64,000 nt of DNA from Prorocentrum cordatum. Taxonomy: Eukaryota; Sar; Dinophyceae; Prorocentrales; Prorocentraceae. Both the position numbers and the translations under genes were made by a program. Of the stretch, positions 9,807 to 49,297 are shown piece by piece (position 1 is the first letter of the stretch; every line of letters begins with the position of its first letter). The stretch is from positions 233,264 through 297,263 of the forward strand of contig CAUYUJ010016069.1 of the NCBI GenBank assembly GCA_963575745.1, read 5' to 3'. The notes below the pieces were generated by a model. That model saw only the letters and a program-made list of their open reading frames with translations, did no database searches and was not told where the DNA came from.

Positions 9807-10099
9807 GTCGTATGTAAGATTCTAACATACGACGCAGTTGTCGTATGTAAGATTCTAACATACGACAAAGTTGTCGTATGTAAGATTCTTACATACGACA
9901 CCGTTGTCGTATGTAAGATTCTAACATACGACGGATGTGTTAATAGAATCCTTATGATATATAAGAGCGATATGTCGTATGTACGATTCTTACATACGAC
10001 AACGTTGTCGTATGTAAGATTCTGACATACGACAGATTTGTCGTATGTAAGATTCTGACATACGACAGATTTGTCGCATGTGAGATTCTGACATACGAC
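9807..10099. repeat. Array of eight 27-bp palindromes at 33-bp period
   Basis: Eight near-perfect palindromes start at 9807, 9840, 9873, 9906, 9974, 10007, 10040 and 10073. Each is about 27 bp (arms GTCGTATGTAAGA and TCTTACATACGAC around one central base, usually with 0-2 mismatches). Within each block of four the period is exactly 33 bp, with 6-bp spacers such as GCAGTT, AAAGTT, ACCGTT and AGATTT. The blocks are separated by a 41-bp A/T-rich insert (9933-9973). Each unit can form a hairpin. It lies 223 bp after gene D, inside the transposon. Confidence 0.9.
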
Positions 10100-10239
10100 A
10101 CCAAGGGTTTGAGCTCATGTTTAGAGTAAACTTCGAGGGTCTCCATCTCGCTCGTGGTCGACGTTGTGCCTAGAATTGGCTCGTCTGCTTGGCTGCGCTG
10201 CCCGCGGCTGCGCTGGATCATGTTGATAAGAGATGTATG

Positions 10240-13776: not shown

Positions 13777-13797
13777 GCATAGCCATTTGGGCTCGAT
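13777..13797 (+). promoter_or_regulatory. Relict spliced-leader-like sequence 5' of gene G
   Basis: TAGCCATTTGGGCTC (13780-13794) matches the dinoflagellate spliced-leader core TAGCCATTTTGGCTC at 14 of 15 bases; over the 21 nt aligned, 16 match. It lies about 95 bp upstream of the gene G ATG. Genomic relict leaders 5' of genes are known in dinoflagellates and are taken as traces of reverse-transcribed trans-spliced mRNAs. The same T-to-G difference occurs in the copy before gene H. Confidence 0.55.
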
Positions 13798-15715: not shown

Positions 15716-15736
15716 CTGTAGCCATTTGGGCTGAAA
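15716..15736 (+). promoter_or_regulatory. Relict spliced-leader-like sequence at the transposase start
   Basis: The 21 nt match the dinoflagellate spliced leader at 17 positions, including GTAGCCATTT and GGCT. It ends two bases before the ATG of the transposase (15739). It marks the likely 5' end of a once trans-spliced mRNA and supports 15739 as the start over the in-frame ATG at 15586. Confidence 0.6.
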
Positions 15737-32399: not shown

Positions 32400-33110
32400 C
32401 CATTTTATGGGGCCTTCTTGGGGCTATTATGGGAGCTTCCGGAGCCCTCTTGAGGGAGCCTTAGGGCCCTCTTGGAGGCGCCAGGAGGCCTCTTGGGGCC
32501 ATGTTGGAAGACCTCGATTGCAGAGGGGGGTTTTAGTTACGCTTACCCCTTTTGAGCCCCAGCAGTCGTCATTTGGAGCTGTGTTGGGGTTCTCTTGGGG
32601 TGCTCTTTGGGGCTCCTGGGCCGTCTTGGGGTCATCTCGGGCTTGTCGTGGGGCCCTCACGGGCCAGATTGGAGCCATCTTGAAACCAAATAATCCCATC
32701 GGAAGCGAAACGGCGAGAAGAACCATATCAATTGTATTCTTTAGGTGTTCGACGGATTTGGGTCTATTGAGGCCATCCTTGAGGAACTCCGTGGCCATTT
32801 GGAGCTGTCTTGGAGCGGTCTTGGGGCATCCTGGAGGCATGTTGATGGCCATCTTGAGCCATCCTTGGATACCTCAAGTAATCTTGGAGGCCATCTTGGG
32901 TTTTTTGAGGGCATCTGGTAGCCATGTTGGCCCCCGAGATGCCCAACTCATTAAACGACAATCGAATATCGAAGGGGCGTCCTCGATTACGTGCGCGCCT
33001 GGGCCCCAAACGTCGCCACTTGGGGCCCTCTTGGGGCGTTTTTGGGGGTGTTTTGGAGCGCCCTTGGGTTTCTTGGAGCCCGCTTGGGCCTCTCTTGGGG
33101 CCCTCCACTT
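32400..33110 (+). repeat. Dispersed degenerate repeat D1 (5' flank of the copia element)
   Basis: Many TTGGGGCC, GCCATCTTGG and GGAGC(C/T)NTCTTGG units, with an inner segment CATCGGAAGCGA...GTGTTCGACGGATTTGGG that reappears beyond the retroelement at about 49260-49330. The copia element therefore appears to sit inside a D1 array. Confidence 0.7.
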
Positions 33111-33115
33111 TCAAG

Positions 33116-33374
33116 TGGGCTGGGATACGGGCGAGAGGTAACGAGCGTGTGTCCGCGGCCATTTGTACTCAAGCGGCCGGCCGCCCAGATCTGATTACAC
33201 CTCAGCGCGAGGTGTACCGCTTGCCATCGAGACCAACACATCCTTTGCTTGACATGGCTCGTCGCTCCCGCGACGATCTCCTACTACTGGGACTATCGGT
33301 ACTATGATACAACAGAGCTGGAGCTGGGCTTCGCCAGAGGCGAAGCTGCTGGTTGGGCCTTCCCACGCTGTTCA
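33116..33374 (+). repeat. 5' LTR of the copia element
   Basis: It matches 48958-49216 over its length, from GCTGGGATAC and GGCGAGAGGTAACGAGCGTG to CTGGTTGGGCC. It contains the inverted pair CTCAGCGCGAGG and GGCTTCGCC...GGCGAAGC. Ends are placed at TG...CA by convention and could be off by a few bases. Confidence 0.8.
33153..33173 (+). promoter_or_regulatory. Spliced-leader-like sequence inside the 5' LTR
   Basis: These 21 nt align without gaps to the dinoflagellate spliced leader with 16 matches: CCG, GCCATTT and a perfect CTCAAG 3' end. The 3' LTR copy at 48995-49015 also matches at 16 positions, with GCCGTTTTTACTCAAG. It could be a fossil of a trans-spliced transcript captured in the LTR (inference). 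Confidence 0.45.
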
Positions 33375-33378
33375 AACT

Positions 33379-33391
33379 TGGTAGCGGAGCT
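33379..33391 (+). promoter_or_regulatory. Primer-binding site, initiator tRNA-Met type
   Basis: TGGTAGCGGAG lies four bases after the 5' LTR and matches the complement of the 3' end of eukaryotic initiator tRNA-Met (TGGTAGCAGAG) at 10 of 11 positions. This is the usual primer of copia-type elements. Confidence 0.65.
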
Positions 33392-33643
33392 GGCCTATGG
33401 TGGTCCGCTCTTGCTCTACTCCTCACCATCCACGGCACTATCTGGTGGACCACTGACGTGGTGGAACATCAAGGTGCAGTGGGTTTGCGCGGAGGAATGT
33501 ACATAACTACGCAATGTCGCAAGGACACTTGCAGTGATACCTCTGCCTACGCAGAGGCCTCTTACTCGCGTCCTACACCCCTGCGATACTAGACTCCTGA
33601 AGTCCACCCGCCTAGTCCAATTGGAAACTTTTTCGAAGACGGA

Positions 33644-34258
33644 ATGCATGGAAACATGCGATACGACATTGTGCCGCCCCCACCCCCACGCAGGCTTACG
33701 ACCACGCACAACAAGCCCCAACCAACCACATCCGACTACGACCTACGAGGCCATTGGATTGGTATAACTATCTTTGAGCTCACATGGATTGCTATCGGGT
33801 GTGCGGTGGGACACATACGTGGCGGAGACGACGCAAGAACCGCTTGCCCCCATTGGGCCCCGGCCGATCAAGTACCTTTCCGCGAATTCGCTCGCGAGGC
33901 GCATGCCTGGATCAACGTGACCACAGGCACCATGACGCCTTCCCAACAAGCTGCAGCATTGCAGCGAGGCTTGGAAGGCCTCGCGCGGACCATAGCCAGG
34001 AGAGTTCCCCCAGCAGCTATCAATTTCGGCGTTAACATAGGTGGCCGCCATACCGATGGCGCCACCTACATCATGTTCCTATTAAGTACGCATTTCGAAA
34101 ACCTAGAAGAGGAACGCCAACTCAACTCGGGCACAGCTCTCATTGACTTCCGAGTCCATGCGGGAGAACGGATCGGCCAGATTTTGGCACGCTTCGAGAT
34201 AGCCCGCTATGAAGCCGAAACGGTAGGCTTCAACATCCCCAACTTCCAAATTCTATAA
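33644..34258 (+). CDS. Gag-like protein of the copia element
   Basis: The open frame contains FREFAREAHAWINVTTGTMT...QQAAALQRGLEGLARTIARR and later FLLSTHFENLEEERQLN...RVHAGERIGQILARFEIARY. This pattern (a Trp-containing helix, repeated alanine-rich helices and a GExIxxxLxRF motif) is typical of UBN2-like/retrotransposon Gag in dinoflagellate copia elements. The first about 65 residues (Pro-rich, then hydrophobic) are less convincing and the true start is uncertain. Gag would form the particle that packages the element RNA. It lies about 270 bp after the primer-binding site. Confidence 0.7.
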   Translation: MHGNMRYDIVPPPPPRRLTTTHNKPQPTTSDYDLRGHWIGITIFELTWIAIGCAVGHIRGGDDARTACPHWAPADQVPFREFAREAHAWINVTTGTMTPSQQAAALQRGLEGLARTIARRVPPAAINFGVNIGGRHTDGATYIMFLLSTHFENLEEERQLNSGTALIDFRVHAGERIGQILARFEIARYEAETVGFNIPNFQIL

Positions 34259-37200
34259 AGTATTTTATTCAGAACCCTTGAAGTGGCGACGTCGCGTGCG
34301 CAACAACTCCTGCAGCCACTAAACCACCACATGCCGAGGGACCAGCAAGTTTGACTCTCTACTTGAACGCGCGAGGTCATGCGCCCACATCGCTGAGAGA
34401 ACCCCCGACAATATTGGTAGCATCTTCAGTCACGGTCACCGTGCCGAGACCATTCACGCTGAGGACAACGCAGGGCAACCTGCTACCAACGTCCAGAAAG
34501 ACGATCCGCAACCGGCGGAGACCACCACCCTATTGACTCAAAATGGTGGTTCGGCCTCGGGGTTGCAAGACTCCTGGGCCAGGTTTAGGGGGCCGCCCGA
34601 TGCGGCGGCCCCTACTCGAGCAACTACCCTAATGGGCTCAGCGGGGCAACCTGCTGAGTCCGCCTTCGCCTCTGGAACCGACGCCGACGCGTCTTCGGAC
34701 GACGAGGCCGCCGCCCTAGACTACTCCGGCATGCCCACGTACCTCGCGGAAGAACAACAGGCGTAATTTTCATTCGTAGGAAACCAGGAACATTAACGCA
34801 CGTGGAGACGATTTATGAAGAGGCCAGTTCGCAAGGTACGACGTACTATCCGACGCGCAATCAGGGGAAAGGGTAAGGGTCGAGGCAAGGGTAAAAGTAA
34901 ACGACGGCGACTGCATGGCAGAGGCATGTTAGCATTTCTAGCATCCCTTACTGGTCCGCAATATAGAGAGATGTTCCTAGGCGCAGGCAGGAACCGTAGG
35001 CATACGTCAGGAAAAAAGGAAAGGGACGTCGAGGCAACCCGAGGGGCGCTAACGGTAAAACAGTGGAATGTGATCTGCCATAGCACGCAACATTGTCGCC
35101 GTGAGTGCCCTCAGGGCGATGGGAGAGACCGAGGTCCGCCGATGCATTTGGATCAAACTGCCTCGGACACGCTGTATGTTGGCTTGGCAACAATTTTGGC
35201 CGACCCTGCCGACAGCTCAGTCGCAGTCGTTAACTGCGTGGCTGCCAGATATTTGAGTGCCAATATGGCCCATCTAGAATTATGCCGACGAGCTGTTCGA
35301 GGAGATATTCACTGGCCACAATGAGATTGACCAGGCAGACTGGCTGGGCATACCCATCGCGGGGCAACCTAGTGACATTGAGCTTGTCGAGGATTTCCAC
35401 GTGCCCGCCGAAGTAGATCGCGAAATGGCGGCGACACCCGCGGATTCAGACACCGCTATTCCTGCGGCAGAAGAGGAAATGCAATGTATGCTCTATCCTC
35501 GGGTTATTGGTAAGCCGACAAACATGGAATTGAGTGATGGTGACCTTTTGCGGGGGAACCCGCGAGATGCTAGCGATCTGTCTGGGCGCGTCCAGTGCGA
35601 GCTCGGCCGCGACGAAGGATTTCAATATGCATTCGCAGCTTCGGATCGCTCCACGGGCCGCCAGGGGCGATCGGCAAGCCGCCGGGCTTGGAGACGCCAG
35701 TGTCGCGCTGGCGACAATGGCGACGGCTGGGAAGATGGCTCGCGTCTGGTACGTCGTGGTCGGGTTCGCGTTGGTTCGCCCAAACATGCGCGCGCGCCCC
35801 AGTGGCGCTCGCTCCAGCGGCCTTCAGCGCCCCCATCTTCCTGATGCACGGGCCCCAAGGGCCCCTCCGAGGAGGGGCCGCAGACCTGGCGCCCCACCGA
35901 GGGTGGGGGGTGCGCTGGCGGGGGCGCCCGCGCCAAAGGGGATAGCCTCAAGAATAATGCCCAGAAGGCGGACGATACAGCGCCTTGTTGACCGCGCGAA
36001 TGCTGGATTGGCTCGCCAGTGCGTAGACCCAGATACGACGCGACACTGGCTGAACAAGGGTTGGGCCGAGCACCGGATTCGCCGTTGGTTTTCCCTTCGC
36101 AAATTTGAGCGAGACGATGTAGGCAACGCCATTCGCTCAAAAAAAGAAGGGGGCTGTCAAACCATGAGGGGCCTTGATAAAGCGAGGCTCCAAGAGGGCC
36201 ATTATCGAGGAACGGAGACTTTACCGAGGTGCTGTTTGCGCTTGATTCGGGCTCGCCGCCCGCGGGCTCGGCTGTTCCATGGGGGCCCATCAAGGGGCCC
36301 CGACTTCCGCAAGACACCGCGGGCCTGGTCTCGCGGCGATGGCCGGGGTCGCTGCACCGATCCGAACACGACGCCGCGCAGCGAGCAGTTGACGCGCGAG
36401 GACTACGAACAAGCTACGGCTCAAGAAATTGTCCAATCCACGAAGATTTGGGGAAGCCTCTCATCTGCTCATTACTTAAAGAAATTCAATCGCGATTGGA
36501 ATGCGGGAAAACCTGCTTCGCCCAAGCAAGAAGGACGACCAGCAAGAAGACGCTGAAGCTGAAGAAATGGCCGAAGCAGTGGACCCCGCTGCTGAGGCTC
36601 CTGCCGTGTGCGACTCGGATTACTCCGAGCCCTTTTCCACTCCCACAAACGTCACTTGTGATCGGGAGGGCTCTGTCGATCCTGCGGCTATCATCGCGGA
36701 AAGCATGGGTCTTTCCCCAGGAAGATTAAGTCGCCTACCGCGTTGGACAGGTAGATTGGGCAAGGACTACTGTCGACAAAAGGCTGAGCGCTACTAAGTA
36801 TAACTTGACCGTCAGGGACAAGCCAACTATTGGCAATCTGTTCCTCGGAAAGCCGGATGGGATAGACCTTGGCCCTGGCAGAGATCATATGCGCCATGCG
36901 CCATGGACACCAGCGGGGGCAACGCCAACGGCACCTGCTCCCAAGACAAGAACCATGTCAAAGAAAGATCAGCATCTGATTGTGCCTGAATCTTCGAGTT
37001 CTTCGAGCAATCCCAAGTCAATCGGTCCTGGTCAGCTCAGACCACCGCCTAAACAGAAGGAGAGGAAAAAGCCCAGGTGACCCCAATCCTGGCGATGGCA
37101 AGCGACAGCGAGCCGCGGGGCAACCTGCTGGTCGACGTCGATCCAGAGGGCCAGCAGTGGCCGCCGCAGCAGCTGCATTTTAAAGGCGCCATCACTCCTA

Positions 37201-38920
37201 CTCCCGAGGGCCCCGCAGCGCGTCGCAGCCCTACACCTGGCCAGGCGCGCGGGGCTGGCCGGGCGCCGGCGCTGGAGGGATCGTCGATGGGATGCTTCTT
37301 CATCGAGGCGCGGTGCCGAGCAGAGACTACTGGAAACTACATCAAGGGCATCAGGGGCAGCTCCCAAATATAAGAAGTGCGAGTACTATAACATCAGTGA
37401 GAAGACACGCCAGGACTTCGACACCCTTACCCCTCGGATCACCCCTCGGACTCCCAAAGGATCCGCATGCGCCGCCTCGCCATCGGCAGGCGCCCGCGCA
37501 CCTTCAGCATCGGCTGCAGCCAAATCCGCGGGACGGATTGATGGGCCAGATCAGAGCTCCGCGGGGCAACCTGCTCCTACTCTCGAAATGCCTGTCGAGT
37601 GCAGACATCATTGGGGATGTATGCGCGCCGCCAGGCGCGCGAATCTCAACCCGGCATATCGCCCCCATGTCGATGACGGGCCTGGTCGATACATCGCGGT
37701 GCAGTGCGACGCCAGGGACACCGCCGTCATTGCCGATCAGGTTTCTCACGCGCGCCAGCTTGTGCGCAATCCTGCGTGGACGTTCGGCTCCCACTTATCT
37801 GTCCGAGAAGAGCTACTTGGCGGGGATCCTTAAAGAAGATGGAATTGTTGGACCAGATATGGTCTATGTGGAGCAGCGCTGCTGCTCAGAGTGGCTAACT
37901 GCTGCTACTCGCCACAGACCATTTCACAACGGCCATTTTTGACAGGTTTCTGAGAGCAGCACCGCCTTTCGACAATTTCGTTAGATAGGTGGAGCCCTCG
38001 GAGCTGCTCGACAAGTGGCCACCTGAAGGATGTCATCATTACCACCCCCGACACCTGGAGACTGTCTGGCGTTGTCTCAGCGACCGCCATTGGGCATATC
38101 AGGCATTAGTTGTGCTGAACTTGATCGGCGTGGTTGACAACGCTGGCATGCGAAAAAAACAGGCCCCATATCAAGAAGTGCAAGTGTGCTACGGAAATTC
38201 ACAATACATACTTCATACGCCCAAGTAATGGACACAGCAGCCCTGGGATAAAGTGCACTGAGGCATTGTATATGAGGATAACGGATTTGACCATTCCAGG
38301 TGCACCTTGTTATTTCACTCCTGGTACCCATTGGGGGAATATCCCGAGTATACTTCGCGCAGGACCGTCATGCCGTGCCGACGACACCACCGGCAGAAGA
38401 GGCAGACAGTTTGTTCATTGTTGTCCATATGTACCTGGTGACAACAGAATCTAATCCGGCCTGCGCGTCGACTCCGAAGTCTGAGTTATGGCTAGTTCGA
38501 GAAACTTGCTTCGTGATAGCATGGCTATTTGGCGTTCAGCAAATGATATTATTATGTCGGCATGCAGGAACGGCAGAATTCCTCCGACTCGCATCGTCCA
38601 GCTCATAGGCATGCTGCCCAACGATAAGTGCATGTATGGCCGCGTGGGCCATGTATGGATCAATCCCATGTACCTGTGTGACAACGAGCAGGAAAAACTT
38701 CGTGATGCTACCCTCGACGAGTTGTACGAATTTCAATATGATGCGTCATCGTTGAAGGATTAGTTGATTTAAACACCCCCTTCAATTTGAAGTGTCCCGG
38801 ACCGACGCCCATCTCCAGGAGGTCGAGTTCTCTACGATATTTACGATGCAAGAAGGGTACTGAGCGGGGACACCTGCAGGGGGATCCGACGGATCGTGAA
38901 TTCAGACCCAGAGTGCGGAC
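34259..38920 (+). other. Copia internal region with broken ORF segments, no known domain
   Basis: Successive open segments switch frame: about 34533-34766, 35341-35844, 36501-36797, 36805-37080, 37370-37833 and 38488-38763. They share a Pro/Ala/Ser-rich style and repeated AGQPA peptides encoded by the 14-nt hairpins. 37370-37833 (YKKCEYYNISEKTRQDF ... SHLSVREELLGGDP) and 38488-38763 (MASSRNLLRDSMAIW...) have better coding character. No family is recognised. The segments may be decayed polyprotein or extra ORFs. Confidence 0.45.
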
Positions 38921-39484
38921 GTGACTGGCATGACATCGAATGGGATTACTCCCGAGGGCATGCTGTGCGCCAACGATCCGTTTCGTGCTCAGACGCAGCA
39001 GCTGCCACTACCTGCAGGGCAACCTGCGTCGTTTGCACCTATGAGTAGGGCCGCGACTCCCTTTGGGACTCCACAGAGCGCTGGGAGCACCGACAGCCTA
39101 CAGGCGAGGCTCCAGAGCATCCGGATGGACCCACAGCTCTACCAGGTTTTGCAGGCGACATCGCCGTTCGCATCGCCGCGTCCACTTGCCGGGCAACCTG
39201 CTTTCCCTGACCGCAACGCTGCGCAGAGGGTCGAGAGTTCGACTGGTCAGCAACAGTGGATGTACCGGCAAATGCGCGAGGCCGCGCAGAGCACGCGCAG
39301 GGGCGGCATCGACCTCCCTAGCGCCAACTGGACGCCACCTTGGGAGTATGTCCCGGACCCAAATCCATCACCGGACAACCCCAATAGGTACGGATACGTG
39401 CCAGCGTTTTTCAGTCATCCGACATGCGATCCGACAGCTGCAGATCGCCCCACAGCACCGCCGATGGACTTCCCATTGTCCTGA
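38921..39484 (+). CDS. Copia ORF segment, Pro/Gln/Ser-rich
   Basis: An open frame of 187 codons starting MTGMTSNGITPEGMLC; it is rich in Ala, Pro, Gln and Ser with two AGQPA repeats, and ends NRYGYVPAFFSHPTCDPTAA... The bias looks coding and it precedes the RING-containing frame, so it is probably part of the same polyprotein. No domain recognised. Confidence 0.45.
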   Translation: MTGMTSNGITPEGMLCANDPFRAQTQQLPLPAGQPASFAPMSRAATPFGTPQSAGSTDSLQARLQSIRMDPQLYQVLQATSPFASPRPLAGQPAFPDRNAAQRVESSTGQQQWMYRQMREAAQSTRRGGIDLPSANWTPPWEYVPDPNPSPDNPNRYGYVPAFFSHPTCDPTAADRPTAPPMDFPLS

Positions 39485-39636
39485 CTACCATGCTCAGGTG
39501 CCGGGAAACCCTCGCGTGGGAACGCAGCCGGAGAATCCGTGTATACGGGCGACAGCCGACGACTTCTATCAGTCTCAGTTGAAGCGGCTCTGGTTGCACG
39601 TAGGGTCTGCTGGGTCAGATTCCTCATTTTGGATAT

Positions 39637-40263
39637 TTGGCTACCCCAGCGGATCTAGATGTGACGCAACAGGCCCCTTGTCTGGTAGTGCCATCATCCA
39701 TGGGAGAGCTGCGCCCGGAGATCCTGGCCATCCACGAGGCGCAACAGGCCAACTTTTCAATGCAGTTGGCCCGCCAGCGTCGCAAGCGGGAGCGGCAGGC
39801 GAACGGGATGCTGGGTCGCGCGGGGCAACCTGCTACTCCAATCACAGCGGGGACACCTGCATTCAACCTGGCAGCGTTTGCAGCCATGCAGCCACCATCG
39901 GTTCCACCGATCCAGCATGAGGTTGGTGAAACTACTCTGGAGCGCCAGAGGCGTATCAGGCCATCGGCAACACAGCCGGTCATCGGCGGCGGTGACTTTT
40001 ACGAGTGTGCCATACGCCTGGACCAATGCATCCATCACGACAGGGTCTGGAGGCTTCAGTGTGGCCACATATTCCATGCGCGTTGCTGGGACCGAGTGGC
40101 ACGCGCTCATTTGGACAGGCAGCTGGCTGGTGGTACTTTGGAAGGTGCTGCAACTGAGACTCCCTGCGCTATTTGCAGGGGCGTTGGTCTAATCGCAGCT
40201 GAGTTTCATTATGCCCTCGCCGGAGATCAAGATGCAGCAAATCGTCATGAAGAAACACTCTGA
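39637..40263 (+). CDS. RING-H2 zinc-finger segment of the copia element
   Basis: The 208-codon frame has a charged helical N-terminal half (VPSSMGELRPEILAIHEAQQ...QRRKRERQ) and a C-terminal RING-H2 signature: ECAIRLDQC (Cys pair with wider than usual spacing), LQCGHIFHARCW (the canonical CxHxxHxxC core) and TPCAICRG (CxxC). RING-H2 domains bind two zinc ions and usually act as E3 ubiquitin ligases. It sits upstream of the protease, still within the LTRs. A RING domain is not a standard copia component; it could be captured cargo or an accessory protein. The first Cys pair is irregular, so zinc site 1 may be degenerate. Hairpin-encoded AGQPA and AGTPA peptides occur in it. Confidence 0.65.
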   Translation: MATPADLDVTQQAPCLVVPSSMGELRPEILAIHEAQQANFSMQLARQRRKRERQANGMLGRAGQPATPITAGTPAFNLAAFAAMQPPSVPPIQHEVGETTLERQRRIRPSATQPVIGGGDFYECAIRLDQCIHHDRVWRLQCGHIFHARCWDRVARAHLDRQLAGGTLEGAATETPCAICRGVGLIAAEFHYALAGDQDAANRHEETL

Positions 40264-40311
40264 GGGGCCAACGAGCTCAGGGACCTTCGCGAAGAGCTCA
40301 ACCGCATCACG

Positions 40312-41400
40312 GTGATGATGACGAACAACACGGCAGTTGCCGCAATAACACCTGCCGGGCAACCTGCTTCATCAGCCAATGCGGTGCAGGCGAGAGCAGC
40401 CACCGCGCCTGCTAGTGGTGCGCCTGTGCCATTGATATCCGCAACAGCCAACAACGCAGGGGCACCTGCTACGACTGCACCTTCAGCGTTGCCGGCCACT
40501 GATACGTGGCTGAGGCGTATGGAGAGGGCCACCGAGAGGAGCGCACAGTGGCTTCAATCTCCACATACATGCGCGCCCAATGGGCGAGACATCCGCCCGC
40601 GTCGCCAGCGCTGGGCGGAGAACCCGGTGATCGTACGTAGCGGCATCAGTGCAATATCCGAGCGCGACATGCTACGCTGTGTTGATGGTGAACACAGATG
40701 GCCAGGTAGCCGTGCGCGCCGACGAGGATACGTTCATGAACGTGCCGCTCACATCTGCACCGCGCCCACACATGCACGACGAGTATCCTGCGGCCTGGAT
40801 TTTCGAGAAGAGCCCCACTACGGAGGAGGAGGCGCGCGGGTACATGAACGTCTTCAGTCTCTGACGAGGAACGATTGGGTGTTGGAGCAGAGGCGCCGCA
40901 AGGGTATGCATGGCACAGCGCGGTCTGAAGTGCCAGGAATATTCGGAGAACGCCATGAAGTGGCCCTGGCCGCGGACTGTGGGACCATGGTGGATGGGAT
41001 GCTGACGATCCTTCTGGACATCGGCAGCAGCATCAACATCATCTGTCTGAAAACGGCACAGACGTTTGAACGCGTATCCTGCTCTTACGGACACGATATC
41101 AAGAATCTGAACTTGACGAAGAGGCATGGTGAGACATGGTGCCGCTGTGCGCGACCGGTCCTCGCACTGCAGAGTTGCGCGCAAGGGGGGAGGGGGTCCG
41201 GAGGGGGCACCTGCTGTGCCGAGACTTGACACCTACTCAGCTAACGTGGCTGAGGGTTGAGGGGAAAACATCCCTGCTCTCCTGGGTTTGAGGACTATGT
41301 CCAACATGAGGACTATCCTGATCCTGGAGCAGGGGTACGAGAAGATGGTCATCCATGGCTCTGAGATGCACAAGCTCCTCCGTGGAAGGGTGTCAGAGTA
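40312..41400 (+). CDS. Aspartic protease segment of the copia polyprotein
   Basis: An Ala/Pro-rich leader with AGQPA and AGAPA repeats leads to a region with LLDIGSSINIICLKTA (Asp at 41017-41019), the DxGS active-site motif of retroviral-type aspartic proteases. The first frame ends at 41229. A further stretch in another frame (about 41267-41400) reads PALLGLRTMSNMRTILILEQ...EMHKLL, which resembles the second half of the copia protease (the ALLGLRxM motif after the flap). The domain is therefore split by a frameshift. It would cleave the polyprotein. Confidence 0.65.
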
Positions 41401-43702
41401 CTTGACTTCATGAAAACGCCTTCGGGGCATCTGGCGCTCAAGGTCGACGAGTACGGGTCCTCATCTGAGGACGAAGGGTCGATGTCGTTTACTATTACAG
41501 CCAATCCCCACAGTGAAGATGACCCGTTGCTCGTCATGGAGGCAGCTGACACAGACACAGAGCCAGTCGCGGGGCAACCTGCATCGAGCAGTGCGGGGGC
41601 ACCCGCTATGAGCGATGCCCATGCATGCATGATGTCTCAGGATACCAAGGGCATCAGCTTCTCCATCAACGAAGAGACGCTTGCTTTCACGATCTAGCCT
41701 GTGGTGAACAACACCTTATAGACTTGGCATCACAGGAAAACGCGTCCTTCGGGGGTATCCCCACGCCAGCCGATCAGGATTTTGCCTTGCGGAACTTGCA
41801 GGCGCAGGTCTATCAGGCCATCTACGAGAAGGGCAGCAAGTGGATGCCGCCCGATGCGAAGGCAGGGGCACCTGCGGGAGGGGATGATGCCGCTGAGAAG
41901 TTTGATATCGTCACTTCGAGCAGCGGCTCAGCAGCGCAGCATGGCACGGGCATTTGAGCGCACCCATCGCTTGAAAATGAGTGACGGGGGCAGGCGCGTG
42001 CCACGGCCACTCGCGCTTGCTCCGACAGGCCGAACGTTGGGGCTCTGTCATCTAGCGCGGGGAAGCCTGCTTCTTTTCCTCTTTTCCCAGGCGCCGGCTG
42101 TGCGCGCCAGGGGCGCTGGCAAGCCCTTCTGCGCGGCTGCCAAGGACAGCAGTAGACCCGGCTGTGTGGCCGCTGCAGCAAATGAACGCTCATCGCATCA
42201 TTATCAGTCTCGTGCACTTGTCATTGAGGACATACGGACAGCTTGCGCTGCACTCCGAGCTCGTGGTTACCTGTGCGAACGTATCGCGCATGCAGAGTTC
42301 ACGACCTCTACTGGTACACAGTATTTGGGTGCTCTACTTTCGGGGGATTATCACCTGTTATGGGTGGCGACGCCTGCTGACTGGTACGTTAGGTTGCCTG
42401 GAAAGCGGGCAGGGCCACATTGCCAACGCATCCACAATCTAATGACCAAGGCTCGGGCTCTACGTATGTTTATAGTCATTATGGGACCGCCAGGTTATTT
42501 CTGGAAGAAAAGGTCCCGTACGAGATGCCATTGAAGATCTAGACTTGCAGGTCATGCGCACGCGGTGCTGCCATTTCGGTATGAAATACGACCGTTCAAG
42601 TAAGTTGCCTAGCGGCTAATATCTGCAAGTGGCAACTACCCACACGCGCGTCCCAACCAACTTGTGGAGATGCACATGCCAAGCTGCAGGGGGACCTGCC
42701 CAACTTGCTGACCATGAATTGGGCGGGCATGGCCAGGGTGCTCAGATGGCAGCAGGGCGCGACAAAACATTGGCTATCATGACCGCGAGATCGATTTACC
42801 AAGTTGATTTGCACAAAACAGAGAGAAATCACACGAGCGCTGTGCACCTTAGCATTCGCGCACGAGTGGATACAGGAGCTCGAACTTTAATGGGACCATG
42901 TCGTAGGACGGGTAACGATGACCCTGGATGACAATGCGATTATACAAGACATCAAGATTCAGGACCAGCCTATCGGGCACAATAACAATGCACCGTTACC
43001 GATTGGCGCGGCAAACTTTCGCATTCGATTATACTGGGAACCGCCAGAACCGGTTCTCATCGGACAAGAGGACCAGCGACCACGCCCAAGGCGAGTTGAT
43101 GACGATCGCCCTCCCTCACCTTGGATTGAGCGCGGCCGCCTGCCCCCCTCCATTCCCGAATTTCCGACGTTGAGTTCACCATGTACTGAGCGACAGACAG
43201 CTGCGCCGACGGATGCCCGAATCAAACAAAAAGAAAAGCATGTAGTCGACAAGCGGGCACCAAGCCACGCAATATACTCAAGGTAGTCGAAGAAGGCAAC
43301 GACGACTGCGGTGATGACCTCAAAGGTCTCGGTCGCAGTGCTCGCTACACCGATGTCCCCCTTGACTCCGACACGGAAAGCGATAATAAAGAGGGGGCCT
43401 TCGTCGCGCTACCTGTGGGGCCACCTGCTGAAACGTGCGCAGATGTATTCTCCAGAATCCCAACGTTATGCTACGGACGACACAACAAGGTCGATATGAT
43501 GGAATAGTGTGGAGGAAGTGGGTGCCCATCGCAGCTAGCATTCAGCCGAGGTCTCCTTGCGGGAGGAAATTTGGACAAACGCTCATATGTTGACCTTGGA
43601 AACCAAGATGTCCATGATGCAGTGATGCATTGCTTGGGCGTGTATTTCGTCAATGTTGTCATACTACAACCCAACTGCATAACGACTTGATTACTTTCCT
43701 AT
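41401..43702 (+). other. Copia region between protease and integrase
   Basis: Open segments: 41410-41697 (acidic, SSSEDEGSMSFTITANPHSE), then a frame change to 41625-41957 (GGIPTPADQDFALRNLQAQV...), then 41782-42534, whose second half reads LVIEDIRTACAALRARGYL...HLLWVATPADWYVRLPGKRA...MFIVIMGPPGYFW. The last piece has strong coding character but I recognise no family. From 42535 to 43702 the frames are shorter, with 42918-43286 the longest. Several hairpin copies lie here. Confidence 0.45.
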
Positions 43703-44543
43703 TTCAACTTCCAAGTCAACTATGACAATTGGCATGCGCGCCATAAAGAAGACCTTCCACATATCAAGTTTTGCGGAAAGTTGCCATGCGTCAAAACGAC
43801 CTTCGACGGTATTACTCACGAGAACAACCAGTGGGTACTTGGGTGGATCAGATACCGCCATGGACCACATTGGCCACATGCAAGGGCATTTGCAAAGTGA
43901 ACATGTAGCAATGTACCACTGGCTTACGTGATTCCCATTGGGTATTGATACGAAAACCGACCAATATTATGGCCAACCATCGCTTTCTATTTACGCCTTT
44001 TGAACCAAAGCGATGTCCTGGCCATCATCAGCAATCAGCATGCATCGGTATGTAATTAAGAACTGTCTATGGCTGCACATTATACTCCAAGGATGCAGTC
44101 TCTTTTCGTCGATGCAGTCCAGGTCGTTCAACTTCCAAGTCAACTGTGACAATTGGCATGCGCGCCATAAAGAAGACCTTCCACATATCAAGTTTTGCGG
44201 AAAGTTGCCATGCGTCAAAACGACCTTCGACGGTATTACTCACGAGAACAACCAGTGGGTACTTGGGTGGATCAGATACCGCCATGGACCACATTGGCCA
44301 CATGCAAGGGCATTTGCAAAGTGAACATGGAGCAATGTACCACTGGCTTACGTGATTCCCATTGGGTATTGATACGAAAACCGACCAATATTATGGCCAA
44401 CCATCGCTTTCTATTTACGCCTTTTGAACCAAAGCGATGTCCTGGCCATCATCAGCATGCATCGGTATGTAATTAAGAACTGTCCATGGCTGCACATTAT
44501 ACTCCAACGATGCAGTCTCTTTTCGTCGATGCAGTCCAGGTCG
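43703..44543 (+). repeat. 424-bp tandem duplication inside the copia element
   Basis: 43703-44126 is repeated at 44127-44543 with a handful of substitutions and one 7-bp deletion (CAGCAAT missing near 44455). Both copies run from TTCAACTTCCAAGTCAACT to GATGCAGTCCAGGTCG. The high identity shows a recent event. Confidence 0.9.
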
Positions 44544-45193
44544 CACACGATGTATTCCAAGTAAACCGTGATCCCTTTCATGGCCACCCTTTTTCTTTCA
44601 CCGTGCTAGTCACCAACGTGAGGGGATCTGATTTGGACGATCCATCTATCCCTCGGCAACCCGACGGGTCGATCTCGAGACCACCCTCGGGGGGGCTAGG
44701 ATGTCCTGCATGCGTGGATAATGTTAACATGCGCTCTCGTTCACATGACAGGAAGCTTAAGCATTGCAGGTGGTATGATAAGGAAGACTACCATTGCGCA
44801 TGTCCGAGCTGTAAGAAGAACTATGGCCATAATAAGCCTGGACATTTACGGACCCCCAGCAAATTCAACTTTGCCAAACCTTGGAAACTGCCCGACAATC
44901 ACGGACAGGCACCACCGGCTCCTGCCGAACCAGCAGCACCACCACCCGAGGCACAAGCCGCACCACCATTTGTGCGGCTACGAGCACCAATGCCCGGCTC
45001 TAGAGCCGGACCCGCAGCGGGTGCCAGCAGCCACGACATTACAGTAGGTAGACATGTTGCCGAACCTGCTGCGGGGCAACCTGCCACGAGTGGAGCGGGT
45101 AGTTCGGATGGCCACACCCCACTGCCACAGGTCAGAGTCAGACGTGAACGACAGCAACGTGCCAATCAGTTCACAAAACCTACGAAACCTTGA
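44486..45193 (+). CDS. Copia ORF segment with Cys-rich zinc-binding-like block
   Basis: A 235-codon frame beginning in the second duplication copy. It has GLGCPACVDNVNMRSRSHDR, then HCRWYDKEDYHCACPSCKKN, with CxxC...C...CxCxxC and flanking His, plausibly a zinc-binding element. A Pro/Ala-rich linker follows with an AGQPA hairpin at 45071. It overlaps the start of the integrase frame in another phase, so a frameshift links it to the polyprotein. Not assigned to a known family. Confidence 0.5.
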   Translation: MAAHYTPTMQSLFVDAVQVAHDVFQVNRDPFHGHPFSFTVLVTNVRGSDLDDPSIPRQPDGSISRPPSGGLGCPACVDNVNMRSRSHDRKLKHCRWYDKEDYHCACPSCKKNYGHNKPGHLRTPSKFNFAKPWKLPDNHGQAPPAPAEPAAPPPEAQAAPPFVRLRAPMPGSRAGPAAGASSHDITVGRHVAEPAAGQPATSGAGSSDGHTPLPQVRVRRERQQRANQFTKPTKP

Positions 45194-46272
45194 TCTAAGC
45201 GTGGTAACGCGCGAGCTGCGGAAGCTACACTTGCGCTCGCCCCATGCGAAAGAGTTTAAGATGAGACTCATCTTAACCAAGGCAGGTCTGGACGACGTCA
45301 GACTCAACCTGATCAAAGGTGTCTGCGACACGTGTCGGGAGTGCAGGGCTTGGGACAAGCCTGGGCATATGGTTATGCAGTCTACTGCACCGCCTGGCAA
45401 GTTCAACGAAGAAGTTGGACGCGACCTCATGTTCTACAAACGAGAACCGAATATATTCCACATCATCGATCGTTGTATTCGCTATGCCACCCGAATGGAG
45501 ATACCGGACAAGACAATGACCAGTATCCTGGATGCGTACCATCAGTGCTGGATGCAGTTTGGACCTGCAAAGGCATTCTACTCCGATGGAGAGGGCGCCC
45601 TCAACAACGACACTGCGAACGCAGTCCTTGAGGCAAAAGGCGCTGAGCTAAGGATGCGCGCGCGTGGACAACGCGCTACGACGATTGAAGCCAGAAATGG
45701 CAGACTACGCCATCTACTTCATGTTATGGAAGCTGAACTCAACAGGCTAGACATACTTCTTGTGTTCACACGACTACTGCTTGAAGCCTTGTTTGCCGCC
45801 AGCGCGTTCACCTTTCATACTGAGGTGTCTCCATGCAACGCCCTGCTTGGACGGCAACCGGCAACGCTCTCTGACTTGCCTGTTCTTGATCACGAGCAGC
45901 CGACGGAAACGTCGGATCAGTCTCGAGAACAGATGATACGCAATGTATGCATTGAAGCTATCACGCAGGCCACTGCAGTAGCCATGGCCAATCGTGCATT
46001 ACGATGAAGGAGATCTAGTTGACTACCAATGCCCCGCAACTACGAAGTACGACTGGGGAGGCTGGACTGGCCCGTTCACGGTTGTAAGAAATGATCCCAA
46101 TAGGGTTCAAGTCATCTTCCGAGTGGGAGGCCGCGACGTTCAAGTACAATGCGGCGATGCACGACGCTCACTTTACATTGAAGCTTTGATCGCCAGAGAG
46201 ATTGGTTCCGACAACACTGCACTACGAACAGGACGTTCGTGGCCAGTCTACCTGCGGGAAGACCTGCTATGA
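45150..46272 (+). CDS. Integrase of the copia element
   Basis: The N-terminal HHCC zinc motif is visible in LHLRSPHAKEF...CDTCRECRAW. The catalytic core follows: EVGRDLMFYK (first Asp near 45423), AKAFYSDGEGALNND (second Asp near 45580) and TTIEARNGRLRHLL (Glu near 45684), the D,D,E triad of retroviral-type integrases, then PCNALLGRQPATL. The frame ends at 46007. The C-terminal domain continues in another frame from 45994 (YDEGDLVDYQCPATTKYDWG...GPFTVVRNDPNRVQVIFRVG), an SH3-like segment normally joined to the core, so a small frameshift separates them. It inserts the cDNA into the host genome. Confidence 0.8.
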
Positions 46273-47181
46273 CATTGGGCTATGCCCTGACCAAGGAGGG
46301 GGCGCTTCAGATGGCAAGTGCAAGCCGGTTATCTCCTAAGATACATCTGGCTCTACAATGCCTAATCAGAAACTTTTTCCGCATCGAGAATGTACTTCCT
46401 GTTAGGTTGGCCAGGGGTATCCACAGGCTACCTCCGGTGGCTGACGCTGACAGTTGCACATTGGTCCACTATGACAGCGATGTGATCCCAGGATTTCTAC
46501 TATTATGAAGCAGAAGGCGCCGCTCTTAACATTCATGATATAACTGGATCAGCACATCCAAGAATCATCTAGTGCCCGAAGTCCACCGAGCCTCACGCGG
46601 GCTTGACAAAGACGTGCCAACATTTGAAGAATTGGCGGATATACCGACGCACGACGGAACCGCAAGAGAAGCCCCAGAAGCCGAACCACCACAGGAGGAT
46701 GGACGGCTTCTTAAGATATACGAGGAATCGGAGGCGGACCTCGAGGCACATATCATGGGAGTGCGGCGTGCAGAACTACATGATGAAAGGGAACTACTGG
46801 AGGCAATTCCACCAGAGGACCTTTTGCCAAAGTACCCACACATATGATTCCATACAACACTGCGCTGATCACTGCAGCTGCAGAACAGCGAGGACACTTG
46901 CCTAAGTGGGGACACCCGCGCGACTCCGACACCGAGGAGACGTATCATGTCCCACTGTGTTCCACGGTCGAAGATTGCAGTTACGGGCCGAATCTTATCC
47001 GGGCAACAGCACAGGATACTAGACGTCGACAGTTTTACCACCATGCGAGTCTTTGTCGCCGCCGATGCGAGGCGAGCTGCGGTTGTCAAGGAAGGCGACC
47101 TCAACGCGAAAGGTGACATCCAGGCGAATCCCGAGAAAGCATCGAAAGCCCGATCCACTGAATTCAAGACATGGTTTGACA
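46273..47181 (+). other. Copia linker between integrase and reverse transcriptase
   Basis: Short open segments such as 46572-46847 (acidic, PTFEELADIPTHDGTAREAP) and 46947-47330 look like decayed polyprotein linker. Two hairpins stand close together at 46888 and 46906. No domain recognised. Confidence 0.5.
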
Positions 47182-48240
47182 ACAGGTGTTTCAAAAGGCA
47201 AGATATATCTAAAGCGTCCGACATCATGACTTCAACGTATGTGTATACATGGAAGTTCGTGCAGAACGAGGGGCGAGATGGAACCTACCATCAGACGACG
47301 CCTGGTGCTTCGAGGCTTCATGGGCCCTGAAGCTTCCGACGTGGAAACCATCTCGGGGACAGCGCGGCGGCCAAGCCAGAGGCTGCTCGCAAGCGTGGTA
47401 GCGTGCAAGAAGCAGTGGATCATTGCTTCGCTTGACATCAGCATGGCCTTCCTGGAAGGGTTGACCTACTAGGAACTTGCTGAGGCAACTGGCGAGAAAG
47501 AACGTGTGGTGTGCTGTACTCTGCCGCCTGGATCGGCTACGGTGCTTCGAACTCTCCCAGGGTTCGAGCACTGCGACGAGTCGGAGCACTGCTTGCAGTG
47601 CCTTCAGCCAGGTACTGGCACCAAGGGCGCACCTCGAGCTTTCTCATTACAGTTCAGAAAGGCCACACGAGGTCTCGGTCTCAGACCCGCGTCCCGCGAC
47701 GAGGAGTTCGAGACGAGCAGCAACCTGCTCGCAGCCAAAAATGTTGATGACATCAATATGGCCGGCACAGAGGACACCATTGACAAGTCCGTCAAGTGCG
47801 TAGAGGACACCTCTGGTAAGTGGAAACTCAGCAAGCACACGTGCACCAATTGCGCTGCGAGGCATGCCGAGGATGAGGGCGGCAATGTTACGTTGGGCCA
47901 AGACGGATCCATCAAACAGCTCCGTCCTCTACAACATCCTGATTTTACCGGCGCCGGCGCTGTCGCCGGGGCATCCAAGATGGTTGCTCACGTGTTCGTC
48001 AGTCTCAGAGGCGCATTGACAAGTGCATTAAGCACCCAGGTATGGTTGGTGGCATGTGTAGTCTCTCTACAACGTGTCCAAGAACCGACCGATATACAAG
48101 TGCGACGACTGAACGCGCTCACCAGGAAACTGCAGGCCTGCCCCAAGAAGATCGTCTACCAAGCGATGACTCCCGCGGGCGAAGCTGACCTGCACAGCGA
48201 CTCAGGTTACCGACGCCTGAGTGGAGATGCCGACGGCGAA
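47182..48240 (+). pseudogene. Reverse transcriptase of the copia element, one internal stop
   Basis: In one frame: SRLHGPEASDVETISGTARR, KQWIIASLDISMAFLEGLTY (the copia RT motif with catalytic Asp), an in-frame TAG at 47470-47472, then ELAEATGEKERVVCCTLPPG, and later AAKNVDDINMAG, the VDD catalytic box. The frame resumes at once after the stop, and Gln (CAG) is the likely ancestral codon, so a single C-to-T change is inferred. Apart from this the domain is continuous to 48240. It synthesises cDNA from the element RNA. Confidence 0.75.
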
Positions 48241-48757
48241 GTCAAAAGGCTATGGTATTCGAGGGGCAAACCTGCTGCGGCGTGGAAACACGCCATCCGG
48301 CAAGCCTGCCGCTCACTTGATCGATGCGCGCTGCAAGTCTCACCGCTTGCAGGTCCGCTCGAGCTATTCAGCAGAGACACTAGCAGCAGCCCGCAACTTG
48401 GAGGACTGCTATCCCACGATCGTGACTCTGCACGAGCTCCATGCAGGGCCGCTAGCTCCCACTCAGTTGAAAAACGTGCTTGAGTTGGGTGGCCTGAGCA
48501 TCGAGGTCACTTTGACCATGGTTGCTGAGTCTGTTTTACAGTCCTTGTCAAGCAAAGACTTGAAGAAGCCGACTGCGTGTACCCTTGTAGGACACACCAA
48601 CTGGATACGACAGATGATGGAGCGAGGAATCGTGCATAGTATCCAGTGGTGTGACACCCGCAACATGACCGCGGACGGTCACACAAAGGGTCGCATCGAC
48701 AGAGATATGCTCCTACAGATCATGGGAGGTACGCGATCCTTCACGCATGCCGCATGA
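48190..48757 (+). pseudogene. RNase H of the copia element, one frameshift
   Basis: The domain begins in the RT frame (AGEADLHSDSGYRRLSGDAD, with the first catalytic Asp) and continues in another frame from about 48247 (KGYGIRGANLLRRG...HLIDARCKSHRL...SSYSAETLAAARNLED...CDTRNMTADGHTKGRI). One extra A in AAAA at about 48243-48246 explains the shift. SAET and DTRNMTADGHTKG hold the other acidic residues. The stop is at 48755-48757, about 200 bp before the 3' LTR. Confidence 0.75.
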
Positions 48758-48957
48758 CTTAAAACGTCATACCCCTTATCAGGCCAGACATCTTGGTCTG
48801 CGGCCGCCTGAGGAGTACTCATACGAACAGTAACGTGCAGGCGAGGCAACTTGCGCGCGGGTCCACCTTCCTTACGGCCCCGCCTTTTTGCTGCCCTTGT
48901 CTACATAGCAGCTGCTGTATCTGCTGTATAGAAGCGGCGGCCCCTCCGACTCTGAAG

Positions 48958-49216
48958 TGAGCTGGGATACAGGCGAGAGGTAACGAGCGTGTGCCCGCGG
49001 CCGTTTTTACTCAAGCGGCTGGCCGCCCAGATCTGAGTACACCTCAGCGCGAGGTGTACCGTTTGCCATCGAGACCAAAACATCCTTTGCTTGAGATGGC
49101 TCGTCGCTCCCGCGACGATCTCCTACTACTGGGACTATCGTTATTACGGTACAACAGAGCTGGAGCTGGGCTTCGCCTAAGGCGAAGCTGCTGGTTGGGC
49201 CTCCCAACCCCTGTCA
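48958..49216 (+). repeat. 3' LTR of the copia element
   Basis: Direct repeat of 33116-33374. It contains the spliced-leader-like 21-mer at 48995-49015 (3' end ACTCAAG). The segment 48758-48957 between RNase H and LTR has the hairpin GCGAG-GCAA-CTTGC at 48841 and no clear polypurine tract. Confidence 0.8.
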
Positions 49217-49297
49217 AACTCCTCTTAGATGATCGAGGAATCATCTTGACCTTGCAGACCTATCGGAAGCGAGAAGGCGGAACGGCAAAACACATAG

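What the first reader, a model, noticed from the sequence alone, without database searches (positions are those of the whole stretch)
34470..48854. A family of 14-nt tetraloop hairpins spread through a copia retrotransposon
About 24 copies of GCGGG-NNNN-CCTGC (loop most often GCAA, a GNRA tetraloop) lie across 14 kb of one element and I found none elsewhere in the window. Copies at 46888 and 48841 read GCGAG...CTTGC, and 41593 reads GCGGG...CCCGC. These are paired changes that keep the stem, so structure rather than peptide seems to be conserved. Most copies also read AG(Q/T/A/K/R/G)PA in frame, which suggests insertion in a frame-tolerant way. It could be a minimal mobile palindrome, a Gag or RNA-packaging handle, or a host-factor site. 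I do not know of a description of such a family.
Basis: partly seen in the sequence, partly recalled or inferred. Interest (0 to 1): 0.9.

Follow-up and report, generated by a model that had tools for sequence, protein, structure and literature searches.

The report
Repeated RNA hairpins in an algal retrotransposon
A group of copia-like jumping genes in a 4-billion-base genome, probably of an alga, carries some twenty to thirty copies of one tiny RNA hairpin along the element, and evolution keeps the hairpin's base pairs rather than the protein letters it encodes, which suggests a repeated RNA handle, perhaps for packaging the element's RNA.

Summary
The window element (LTRs 33107-33378, 48949-49220) has 21 sense-strand GCnGG-N4-CCnGC sites. 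The wider class GC-N3-GNNA-N3'-GC gives 26 paired sense and 0 antisense hairpins, three of them probably chance. GCGGGGCAACCTGC occurs 5420 times in the host genome against 41 for the reversed control.

Peptide conservation does not explain it: silent positions in the motif are conserved, conservation stops at 14 nt, and in related element groups the hairpin lies in other frames with a covarying stem (35 of 40 and 45 of 46 GC-N3-GNRA-N3-GC windows fully paired; covariation 0.513 against 0.131). A double-stranded DNA site is disfavoured: G-U 5420 copies, A-C 171.

The two indel cases examined are in-frame 12- and 24-nt steps, so a mobile palindrome is not supported. Best explanation: a dispersed RNA recognition element, most likely bound by the element's own Gag for RNA selection or packaging. 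The hairpin is shown; the function is inferred.

The parts
33107..49220 (+). whole copia-like LTR element (degenerate copy)
   Evidence: two LTR-like repeats 91% identical over 272 nt; weak rve and RVT_2 matches in copia order
33107..33378 (+). 5' LTR (repeat part)
48949..49220 (+). 3' LTR (repeat part)
33519..33532 (+). hairpin GCAAG-GACA-CTTGC near the 5' end
   Evidence: aligned in L013, L020, L021, L024: stem fully paired in 3 of 4 (one by a G-U change), one mismatched pair in L024
33646..33659 (+). hairpin GCATG-GAAA-CATGC
   Evidence: 5 aligned loci: stem intact in L020, L021, L024 (loop end changed in L020 and L024), outer letter lost in L013, one mismatch in L026
34470..34483 (+). hairpin, AGQPA frame
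34641..34654 (+). hairpin, AGQPA frame
35359..35372 (+). decayed hairpin (AGQPS); intact in most of the 16 aligned loci
35428..35441 (+). decayed hairpin (one mismatched pair); GCGGGG..CCCGC or CCTGC in about half of the aligned loci
35550..35563 (+). hairpin in the RGNPR frame
   Evidence: pair 3-12 is G-C in 13 of 15 rows, mismatched in 2
35918..35931 (+). hairpin, loop GGCG
36503..36516 (+). hairpin, AGKPA frame, loop AAAA
37115..37128 (+). hairpin
37561..37574 (+). hairpin, AGQPA frame; extra neighbouring copies in other elements
38864..38877 (+). hairpin, AG[T/A]PA
39014..39027 (+). hairpin; middle pair A-U becomes G-C in L012 and L026
39188..39201 (+). hairpin with a mismatch here (C opposite U); G-U in 16 of 18 rows
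39820..39833 (+). hairpin
39847..39860 (+). hairpin
40354..40367 (+). hairpin with a mismatch here (C opposite U)
40456..40469 (+). hairpin, AGAPA
41201..41214 (+). decayed hairpin (position 2 is A here)
41569..41582 (+). hairpin; first of a pair that is contracted by 24 nt in L019, L020, L022, L023, L025, L027
41593..41606 (+). hairpin with G-C middle pair
41862..41875 (+). hairpin
42057..42070 (+). hairpin, loop GAAG
42686..42699 (+). hairpin, loop GGGA; loops GAAA or GGAA in 6 of 8 relatives listed, a mismatched middle pair in the other 2
43415..43428 (+). hairpin with U-G second pair; GCGGGGCAACCTGC in 4 of 6 relatives listed
43880..43893 (+). variant hairpin GCAAG-GGCA-TTTGC
   Evidence: fully paired in 3 of 8 aligned loci (L009, L015, L016), one A-C mismatch in L010, L012, L023, outer letters lost in L027 and L037
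44304..44317 (+). same hairpin in the internal duplication
45071..45084 (+). hairpin, AGQPA
45199..45212 (+). variant hairpin GCGTG-GTAA-CGCGC (RGNA frame)
   Evidence: fully paired in L009, L015, L049, L051 of 7 aligned loci, broken in L012, L016, L054
46254..46267 (+). hairpin, AGRPA, loop AAGA
46888..46901 (+). variant hairpin GCGAG-GACA-CTTGC
   Evidence: no fetched relative aligned over it
48280..48293 (+). variant hairpin GCGTG-GAAA-CACGC
   Evidence: not kept in L064, the one relative aligned there
48841..48854 (+). hairpin GCGAG-GCAA-CTTGC in the apparently noncoding stretch before the 3' LTR
   Evidence: stem kept in both aligned relatives, L063 (GCAAG..CTTGC) and, with a G-U pair and loop TTAA, L064
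34797..35321 (+). Arg/Lys-rich stretch followed, in relatives, by CX2CX4HX4C: candidate Gag nucleocapsid-like RNA-binding region (the window copy lacks the first Cys)
   Evidence: pattern seen by eye; Pfam gives no zf-CCHC match
39604..40260 (+). segment with RING-like zinc finger
   Evidence: zf-RING_5 E 0.00048, below cut-off
45228..46004 (+). integrase-like segment
   Evidence: rve E 0.017, below cut-off
47230..47469 (+). reverse transcriptase-like segment
   Evidence: RVT_2 E 0.0002, below cut-off

Best explanation
The feature is a family of short RNA stem-loops, 5'-GC-N3-GNNA-N3'-GC-3' (mostly GNRA in the related groups), repeated some 20 to 30 times along the genomic-strand RNA of copia-like LTR retrotransposons. 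Shown: the stem is conserved by compensating changes, essentially only on the sense strand, in more than one reading frame and in an apparently noncoding 3' stretch, across element groups that otherwise differ widely. Inferred: the hairpins are read in trans by one protein. The most likely reader is the element's own Gag, in which a basic stretch and a zinc-knuckle-like pattern are also conserved; many weak sites spread along the internal RNA would mark it for selective packaging and condensation into particles. They lie in fast-evolving linkers because the peptide cost is lowest there, which would explain why one frame (AGxPA) dominates in the window's family.
For: Genome-wide count 5420 against 41 reversed control. 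In 19 aligned sequences (window plus 18 loci), silent motif positions 6, 9, 12 differ 0.162 against 0.387 at other third positions (0 of 20000 draws as low), and position 15 just outside is free, 0.437; the conserved block ends sharply at 14 nt. 312 of 322 kept orthologous rows (of 324) form a standard pair at 3-12, within-site shuffle P 0.0002. In group 2 and in L059+L060, 45 of 46 and 35 of 40 GC-N3-GNRA-N3-GC windows have all inner pairs, with G-C, A-U, U-A and C-G types; antisense 0 of 0 and 1 of 6. Covariation 0.513 against 0.131, 0 of 500 shuffles; slid controls at most 46.5% paired against 95.2%. Other frames: RGNPP and AGQPA in one ORF with silent stem positions invariant; X-G-N-X' peptides whose outer codons are reverse complements. 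Genome counts G-U 5420, A-U 2176, G-C 3882, U-A 934, A-C 171. Candidate reader: basic stretch plus CX2CX4HX4C in several family-1 loci and a similar basic stretch in L060.
Against: No binding, packaging or expression data. Predicted local folding in the window copy is mixed (mean hairpin probability 0.43 against 0.29 for synonymous recodings; 6 of 20 sites at or below 0.05). In the window's family many loops are GACA or GGCA. Pairs 1-14 and 2-13 hardly vary and give no covariation evidence; at those outer pairs changes that keep a G-U pair (8) are no commoner than those that break it (7). One of five measures, the number of pairs with a change on both sides, does not exceed its shuffles (3 against 2.4, 216 of 500). 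Several variant sites are broken in some relatives. Loci were picked because they hold at least one exact motif, and related copies are not independent.
Confidence: 0.5

Rival explanations
1. Host-factor site: a host RNA-binding protein (export, stability, localisation or silencing) reads the hairpins, which the element has collected to recruit or titrate it.
For: Sense-strand RNA specificity and multi-copy layout fit equally well; four of 30 sampled contexts show no similarity to known copies over the motif, so some sites may lie elsewhere.
Against: 26 of 30 sampled contexts lie in the related copia-like groups; no enrichment in the other 48 kb of the window.
Confidence: 0.25
2. Translation or co-translational folding device: hairpins in linkers slow ribosomes between domains.
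For: In family 1 the copies sit in fast-evolving stretches (third-position difference within 15 nt 0.462 against 0.387 overall) and no AGxPA-type site lies in the integrase-like segment 45228-46004.
Against: A copy in an apparently noncoding 3' stretch keeps its stem; a fixed loop and outer pairs would not be needed for pausing, and a 5-bp hairpin is weak (inference).
Confidence: 0.08
3. Conserved AGxPA peptide repeat; the stem is a by-product because AGxPA codons are palindromic at 8 of 10 stem positions.
For: 15 AGxPA peptides in frame; relatives keep AGxPA at matching sites.
Against: Silent-site conservation; other frames with other peptides; compensating changes that alter amino acids on both sides.
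Confidence: 0.02
4. Double-stranded DNA palindrome bound by a dimeric protein, or a mobile mini-palindrome.
For: Palindromic letters; clean 12-nt and 24-nt gains or losses.
Against: By symmetry a DNA palindrome would have equal G/T and A/C forms; 5420 against 171 found. Sites are orthologous across copies; no 14-nt empty site or target duplication was seen in the two indel cases examined.
Confidence: 0.03
5. RNA dimerisation, template switching or long-range genome folding through GNRA tetraloop-receptor contacts, without a protein reader.
For: GNRA loops in the related groups (23 of 30 GCnGG-type sites in L059+L060; 27 of 28 in group 2). Recalled: GNRA loops dock into RNA receptors.
Against: Family 1 mostly keeps G..A with free middle letters, which weakens receptor docking; no receptor motif was searched for.
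Confidence: 0.1

Closest known systems
Multiple dispersed packaging signals of single-stranded RNA viruses and hepatitis B pregenomic RNA (PMC6281560, passages read)
   Same: many stem-loops with a shared loop feature spread along the genomic strand
   Different: here an LTR retrotransposon; the 14-nt unit and its outer pairs look far more uniform; no coat-protein binding has been shown
Ty1 RNA cis-acting packaging/dimerisation region (PMC5454406, PMC8396678; abstract openings seen in search listings)
   Same: packaging-related RNA structure in a copia-class element
   Different: the Ty1 listing speaks of sequences at the 5' terminus, not of a repeated hairpin over the whole RNA
Rickettsia palindromic elements inserted in frame in genes (recalled, no call)
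   Same: short palindromes inside coding sequence
   Different: here sites are old and orthologous, the frame differs between element groups, and no insertion signature was found
GNRA-type hairpins such as lambda boxB or SSU rRNA helix 45 (recalled, no call)
   Same: small stem with a short structured loop
   Different: no evidence of common origin or shared reader

Membership tests
Ty1/copia LTR retrotransposon | two similar LTRs flanking the internal region | tested here: met
   272 nt, 91%
Ty1/copia LTR retrotransposon | integrase upstream of reverse transcriptase | tested here: inconclusive
   rve-like at about 45.4-45.7 kb (E 0.017) and RVT_2-like at about 47.3 kb (E 0.0002), both below Pfam cut-offs, order as expected
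GNRA-tetraloop hairpin | loop G-N-R-A closed by a stem | tested here: inconclusive
   23 of 30 GCnGG-type sites in L059+L060 and 27 of 28 in group 2; family 1 is mixed GNNA
Conserved RNA structure | compensating changes above controls | tested here: met
   (one of the five measures does not exceed its shuffles)
Dispersed packaging signals | many copies on the genomic strand with a shared recognition feature | tested here: met
Dispersed packaging signals | binding by the coat/Gag protein and effect on assembly | not testable with these tools
   needs experiments
Mobile palindromic element | clean insertion of the unit at empty sites | tested here: not met
   only a 12-nt gain and a 24-nt contraction in the two cases examined
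Protein repeat AGxPA | peptide kept, silent sites free, one frame | tested here: not met
Any Rfam family | match at gathering score | tested here: not met
   0 matches in the window

The most novel reading that the evidence does not exclude
An LTR retrotransposon lineage marks its own genomic RNA with an array of about 25 interchangeable tetraloop hairpins, read in trans by Gag: dispersed packaging signals in a retrotransposon, so strongly selected that stems are rebuilt by double mutations that change two amino acids at once.
Probability: 0.45. Interest if true: 0.9.

Novelty: new variant of a known kind. Interest (0 to 1): 0.8.

Why it matters
How LTR retrotransposons pick their own RNA is known in detail for few elements (recalled). 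A repeated, simple recognition unit with thousands of natural variants in one genome would make RNA recognition directly testable, gives a marker for finding related elements, and shows RNA structure overriding protein sequence in a polyprotein gene.

Tried and rejected
Peptide-only explanation: rejected. Chance or composition: rejected. Double-stranded palindrome: disfavoured by the G/T against A/C asymmetry. Mobile unit: not supported. Public viral contigs: no confirmed relative; a plasmid search gave only chance-level hits, E 0.6. Rfam and tRNA scans of the window: nothing. Protein relatives came only from EukProt entries labelled Pyramimonas sp.. A first hint of silent conservation came from frameshifted relatives P0032, P0040, P0043, P0044 and was superseded by DNA. 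RNA folding of the window copy alone was only mildly supportive. Sites 37625 and 48013 are paired in the window but not kept in the relatives aligned there, and 33328 lies inside the LTR; all three are counted in the 26 but left out of the parts; the first two are also in the 30 paired sites. L040, L042, L043 and L045 hold the motif without recognisable similarity over it; chance and decayed copies were not separated. The genome count for the A-A intermediate could not be obtained.
Full report
WHAT WAS CHECKED. The stated motif is present at the stated places. GCGGG-N4-CCTGC has 11 matches, all on the + strand and all inside the element, against a shuffled mean of 0.57. GCNGGGNNACCTGC has 15 matches, again all + and all inside, against 0.07. 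The element is flanked by a 272-nt direct repeat, 91% identical, at 33107-33378 and 48949-49220. Weak integrase (E 0.017) and reverse transcriptase (E 0.0002) matches in copia order, both below Pfam cut-offs, fit a decayed copia-like element.

THE PEPTIDE TRAP. A peptide Ala-Gly-x-Pro-Ala is encoded by GCN GGN NNN CCN GCN, so eight of the ten stem letters pair whatever the codons. Stem pairing alone is therefore no evidence of structure. The informative letters are the silent ones: motif positions 3, 6, 9 and 12. Taking AGxPA peptides by amino acid only, 15 occur in the stop-free segments examined: 14 use GGG, 14 use CCT and 15 have an x codon ending in A, although codon usage in the element is nearly flat (GGG 0.21, CCT 0.27, CAA 0.33 of Gln).

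THE HOST GENOME. The window lies in G000 (4.13 Gb, 21,875 contigs). GCGGGGCAACCTGC occurs 5420 times there, its reversed control 41 times. I fetched 20 stretches of 9 to 10 kb, chosen from the first 100 places listed, where the motif clusters. All 20 align to the window element, at mean identities of 67.8 to 81.4% (L021 over 2967 nt only). These loci were chosen for holding at least one exact motif, which biases towards presence.

SITE BY SITE. In 19 aligned sequences (window plus 18 loci) over 38.8-42.1 kb, silent positions 6, 9 and 12 of 11 motif sites differ by 0.162 on average, other third codon positions by 0.387; 0 of 20,000 random draws were as low. Position 15, one base beyond the stem, is free (0.437). 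One of the 11 sites, 41201, is out of the frame assumed for the window there. The profile falls from 0.53 at the base before the motif to 0.07 at its first base and rises from 0.06 to 0.44 after base 14. The conserved block is therefore the 14-nt hairpin and nothing more.

PAIRING. Over 25 sites, the window and up to 24 loci there are 324 ungapped orthologous rows; 322 keep at least 6 of the 8 outer letters. The pair 3-12 is standard in 312 of 322. Shuffling within each site gives 306.9 on average and reaches 312 with P 0.0002. A opposite C is seen 2 times, 7.1 expected. Changes that keep a G-U pair at positions 10 and 11 (24) outnumber the matching changes that break it at 4 and 5 (11), but at the outer positions 1, 2, 13 and 14 the two kinds are about equal (8 and 7; all). 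Genome-wide, with loop GCAA: G-U 5420, A-U 2176, G-C 3882, U-A 934, A-C 171 (reversed controls 41, 20, 111, 6, 18). Independence would predict about 1558 A-C. A palindromic DNA site would predict as many A-C as G-T, because they are the same site read from the other strand. A structure in sense-strand RNA predicts this asymmetry.

OTHER ELEMENT GROUPS AND OTHER FRAMES. I sampled 30 contexts of hits that stood alone or nearly alone in the listed places: 17 are family 1 over the motif, 7 a diverged group 2, 2 a further diverged group, 4 unclear (a notebook entry gave 14 instead of 13 for family 1). In group 2, two hairpins read RGNPP and a third reads AGQPA in the same open frame. The silent stem positions are invariant in all six loci (0.00 against 0.263 at other third positions) and the only variable letter in the three hairpins is loop base 7 of the first. 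In two 10-kb stretches of the further group (L059, L060; 74.8% identical over 4400 aligned bases; L059 shares five sites with group 2 at nearly the same spacing), 43 hairpins that pass a pairing filter lie in phase 0 (9), 1 (3), 2 (30) or outside a long frame (1), taking the longest stop-free segment as the frame, which may be wrong for some. Phase-2 copies read X-G-x-X', mostly with Asn as x, where codon X' pairs with codon X: QGNL, RGNP, LGNE, LGNQ, HGNV, RGNT, RGNA, RGNS and PGNR are exact reverse complements. Two amino acids thus change together where base pairs are kept.

FORMAL COVARIATION. Selecting only on the outer GC..GC and a GNRA loop, with the inner stem free, all three inner pairs form in 35 of 40 (L059+L060), 45 of 46 (group 2), 156 of 226 (family 1) and 14 of 18 (window element) sense windows; antisense 1 of 6, 0 of 0, 4 of 49 and 0 of 3; the rest of the window, both strands, 4 of 33. 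On the 33 distinct sequences of L059, L060 and group 2, 95.2% of cells pair against 75.4% shuffled, the covariation score is 0.513 against 0.131 (0 of 500), further pair types 12 against 7.7 (2 of 500), and slid structures pair at most 46.5%; the number of pairs with a change on both sides, 3, is not above its shuffles (2.4; 216 of 500). Pairs 1-14 and 2-13 were fixed by selection and say nothing.

MORE MEMBERS IN THE WINDOW. With the wider definition GC-N3-GNNA-N3'-GC the element holds 26 paired sense hairpins and no antisense one, including 33519 and 33646 near the 5' end and 48841 just before the 3' LTR. Three of the 26 (33328, 37625, 48013) are probably chance. Adding the GCnGG-type sites with other loops and four further sites known from relatives gives 35 candidates between the LTRs, 30 of them fully paired (37625 and 48013 included). 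The site at 48841 lies after the last long stop-free segment; two relatives cover it and both keep the stem (GCAAG-GCTA-CTTGC in L063; GCAGG-TTAA-CTTGC with a G-U pair in L064, whose loop is no longer G..A). The other variant sites are less constant: 43880 is fully paired in 3 of 8 aligned loci, 45199 in 4 of 7, 33519 in 3 of 4, 33646 in 3 of 5; 48280 is not kept in L064 and 46888 is not covered.

GAIN AND LOSS. At window position 40404 six copies (L013, L019, L022, L023, L025, L027) have 12 extra nucleotides that carry a further motif site (decayed in L019), as after an in-frame tandem step; at 41569-41606 six copies (L019, L020, L022, L023, L025, L027) lack exactly 24 nt, so that two hairpins are one. 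These look like slippage or template jumps between repeats, not insertion of a mobile unit.

HOW IT PROBABLY WORKS. Shown: a conserved RNA hairpin family, essentially sense strand only, tied to these elements in 26 of 30 sampled contexts. Inferred: it is a recognition site used many times per RNA. The best candidate reader is Gag. In several family-1 copies (L013, L022, L023, L024, L038), at window 34.8-35.1 kb, a basic stretch is followed by the spacing CX2CX4HX4C; the window copy lacks the first Cys; L060 has a similar basic stretch followed by cysteines. Pfam does not recognise a zinc knuckle, so this rests on the pattern. The nearest known idea is the multiple dispersed packaging signals of RNA viruses (PMC6281560; passages read). 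A host protein is the main rival.

WHAT IS KNOWN. Ten literature searches in an open-access library showed no description of such hairpins in an LTR retrotransposon among the rows listed, which were at most 20 of up to 801 papers per search; only titles and abstract openings were seen for most. Subscription journals and preprints were not searched.

HOST. G000's size (4.13 Gb) and the window's G+C (0.50 to 0.74 by 2-kb block, mostly near 0.6) fit the dinoflagellate Prorocentrum cordatum (about 4.15 Gb in the abstract opening of PMC10449503; a table passage of PMC11453091 gives G+C 59.7 but a size of 4,750 Mb), but all protein relatives found carry the label Pyramimonas sp. in EukProt. The host is left open.

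LIMITS. Copies are related and not independent; the shuffles do not correct for that. Loci were chosen by exact motif from capped listings. The genome tool answered five searches. Other copies were seen only in part, so hairpins per element are known for the window copy alone. The function is untested.

Noticed in passing
33153-33173 and 48995-49015: Inside both LTRs a 21-nt stretch matches the dinoflagellate spliced leader (recalled sequence) at 16 of 21 letters; L024 and L026 have matches of 15, the other fetched loci with LTR parts none of 15 or more. Two non-LTR places in the window score as high or higher (17 at 15716, 16 at 13777), so this may be chance.
   Followed up: partly
39604-40260: The element encodes a RING-like zinc finger, also present in several protein relatives and, by eye, in L039; unusual for a copia element as far as I recall.
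   Followed up: partly
43703-44543: Internal tandem duplication of about 420 nt, 98-99% identical, carrying one variant hairpin in each copy.
   Followed up: no
   Followed up: partly
L009:9615, L016:7681, L012:7634 (oriented): A stem of the same type with loop TAAC or TGAC (GCGGG-TNAC-CCTGC) recurs in three loci at places that did not map to the window.
   Followed up: no
9807-10101: 33-nt tandem repeat whose unit contains an inverted repeat (GTCGTATGT..ACATACGAC).
   Followed up: no
hairpin class: The commonest form resembles the helix 45 hairpin of small-subunit rRNA (recalled); GACA and GGCA loops speak against mimicry.
   Followed up: no
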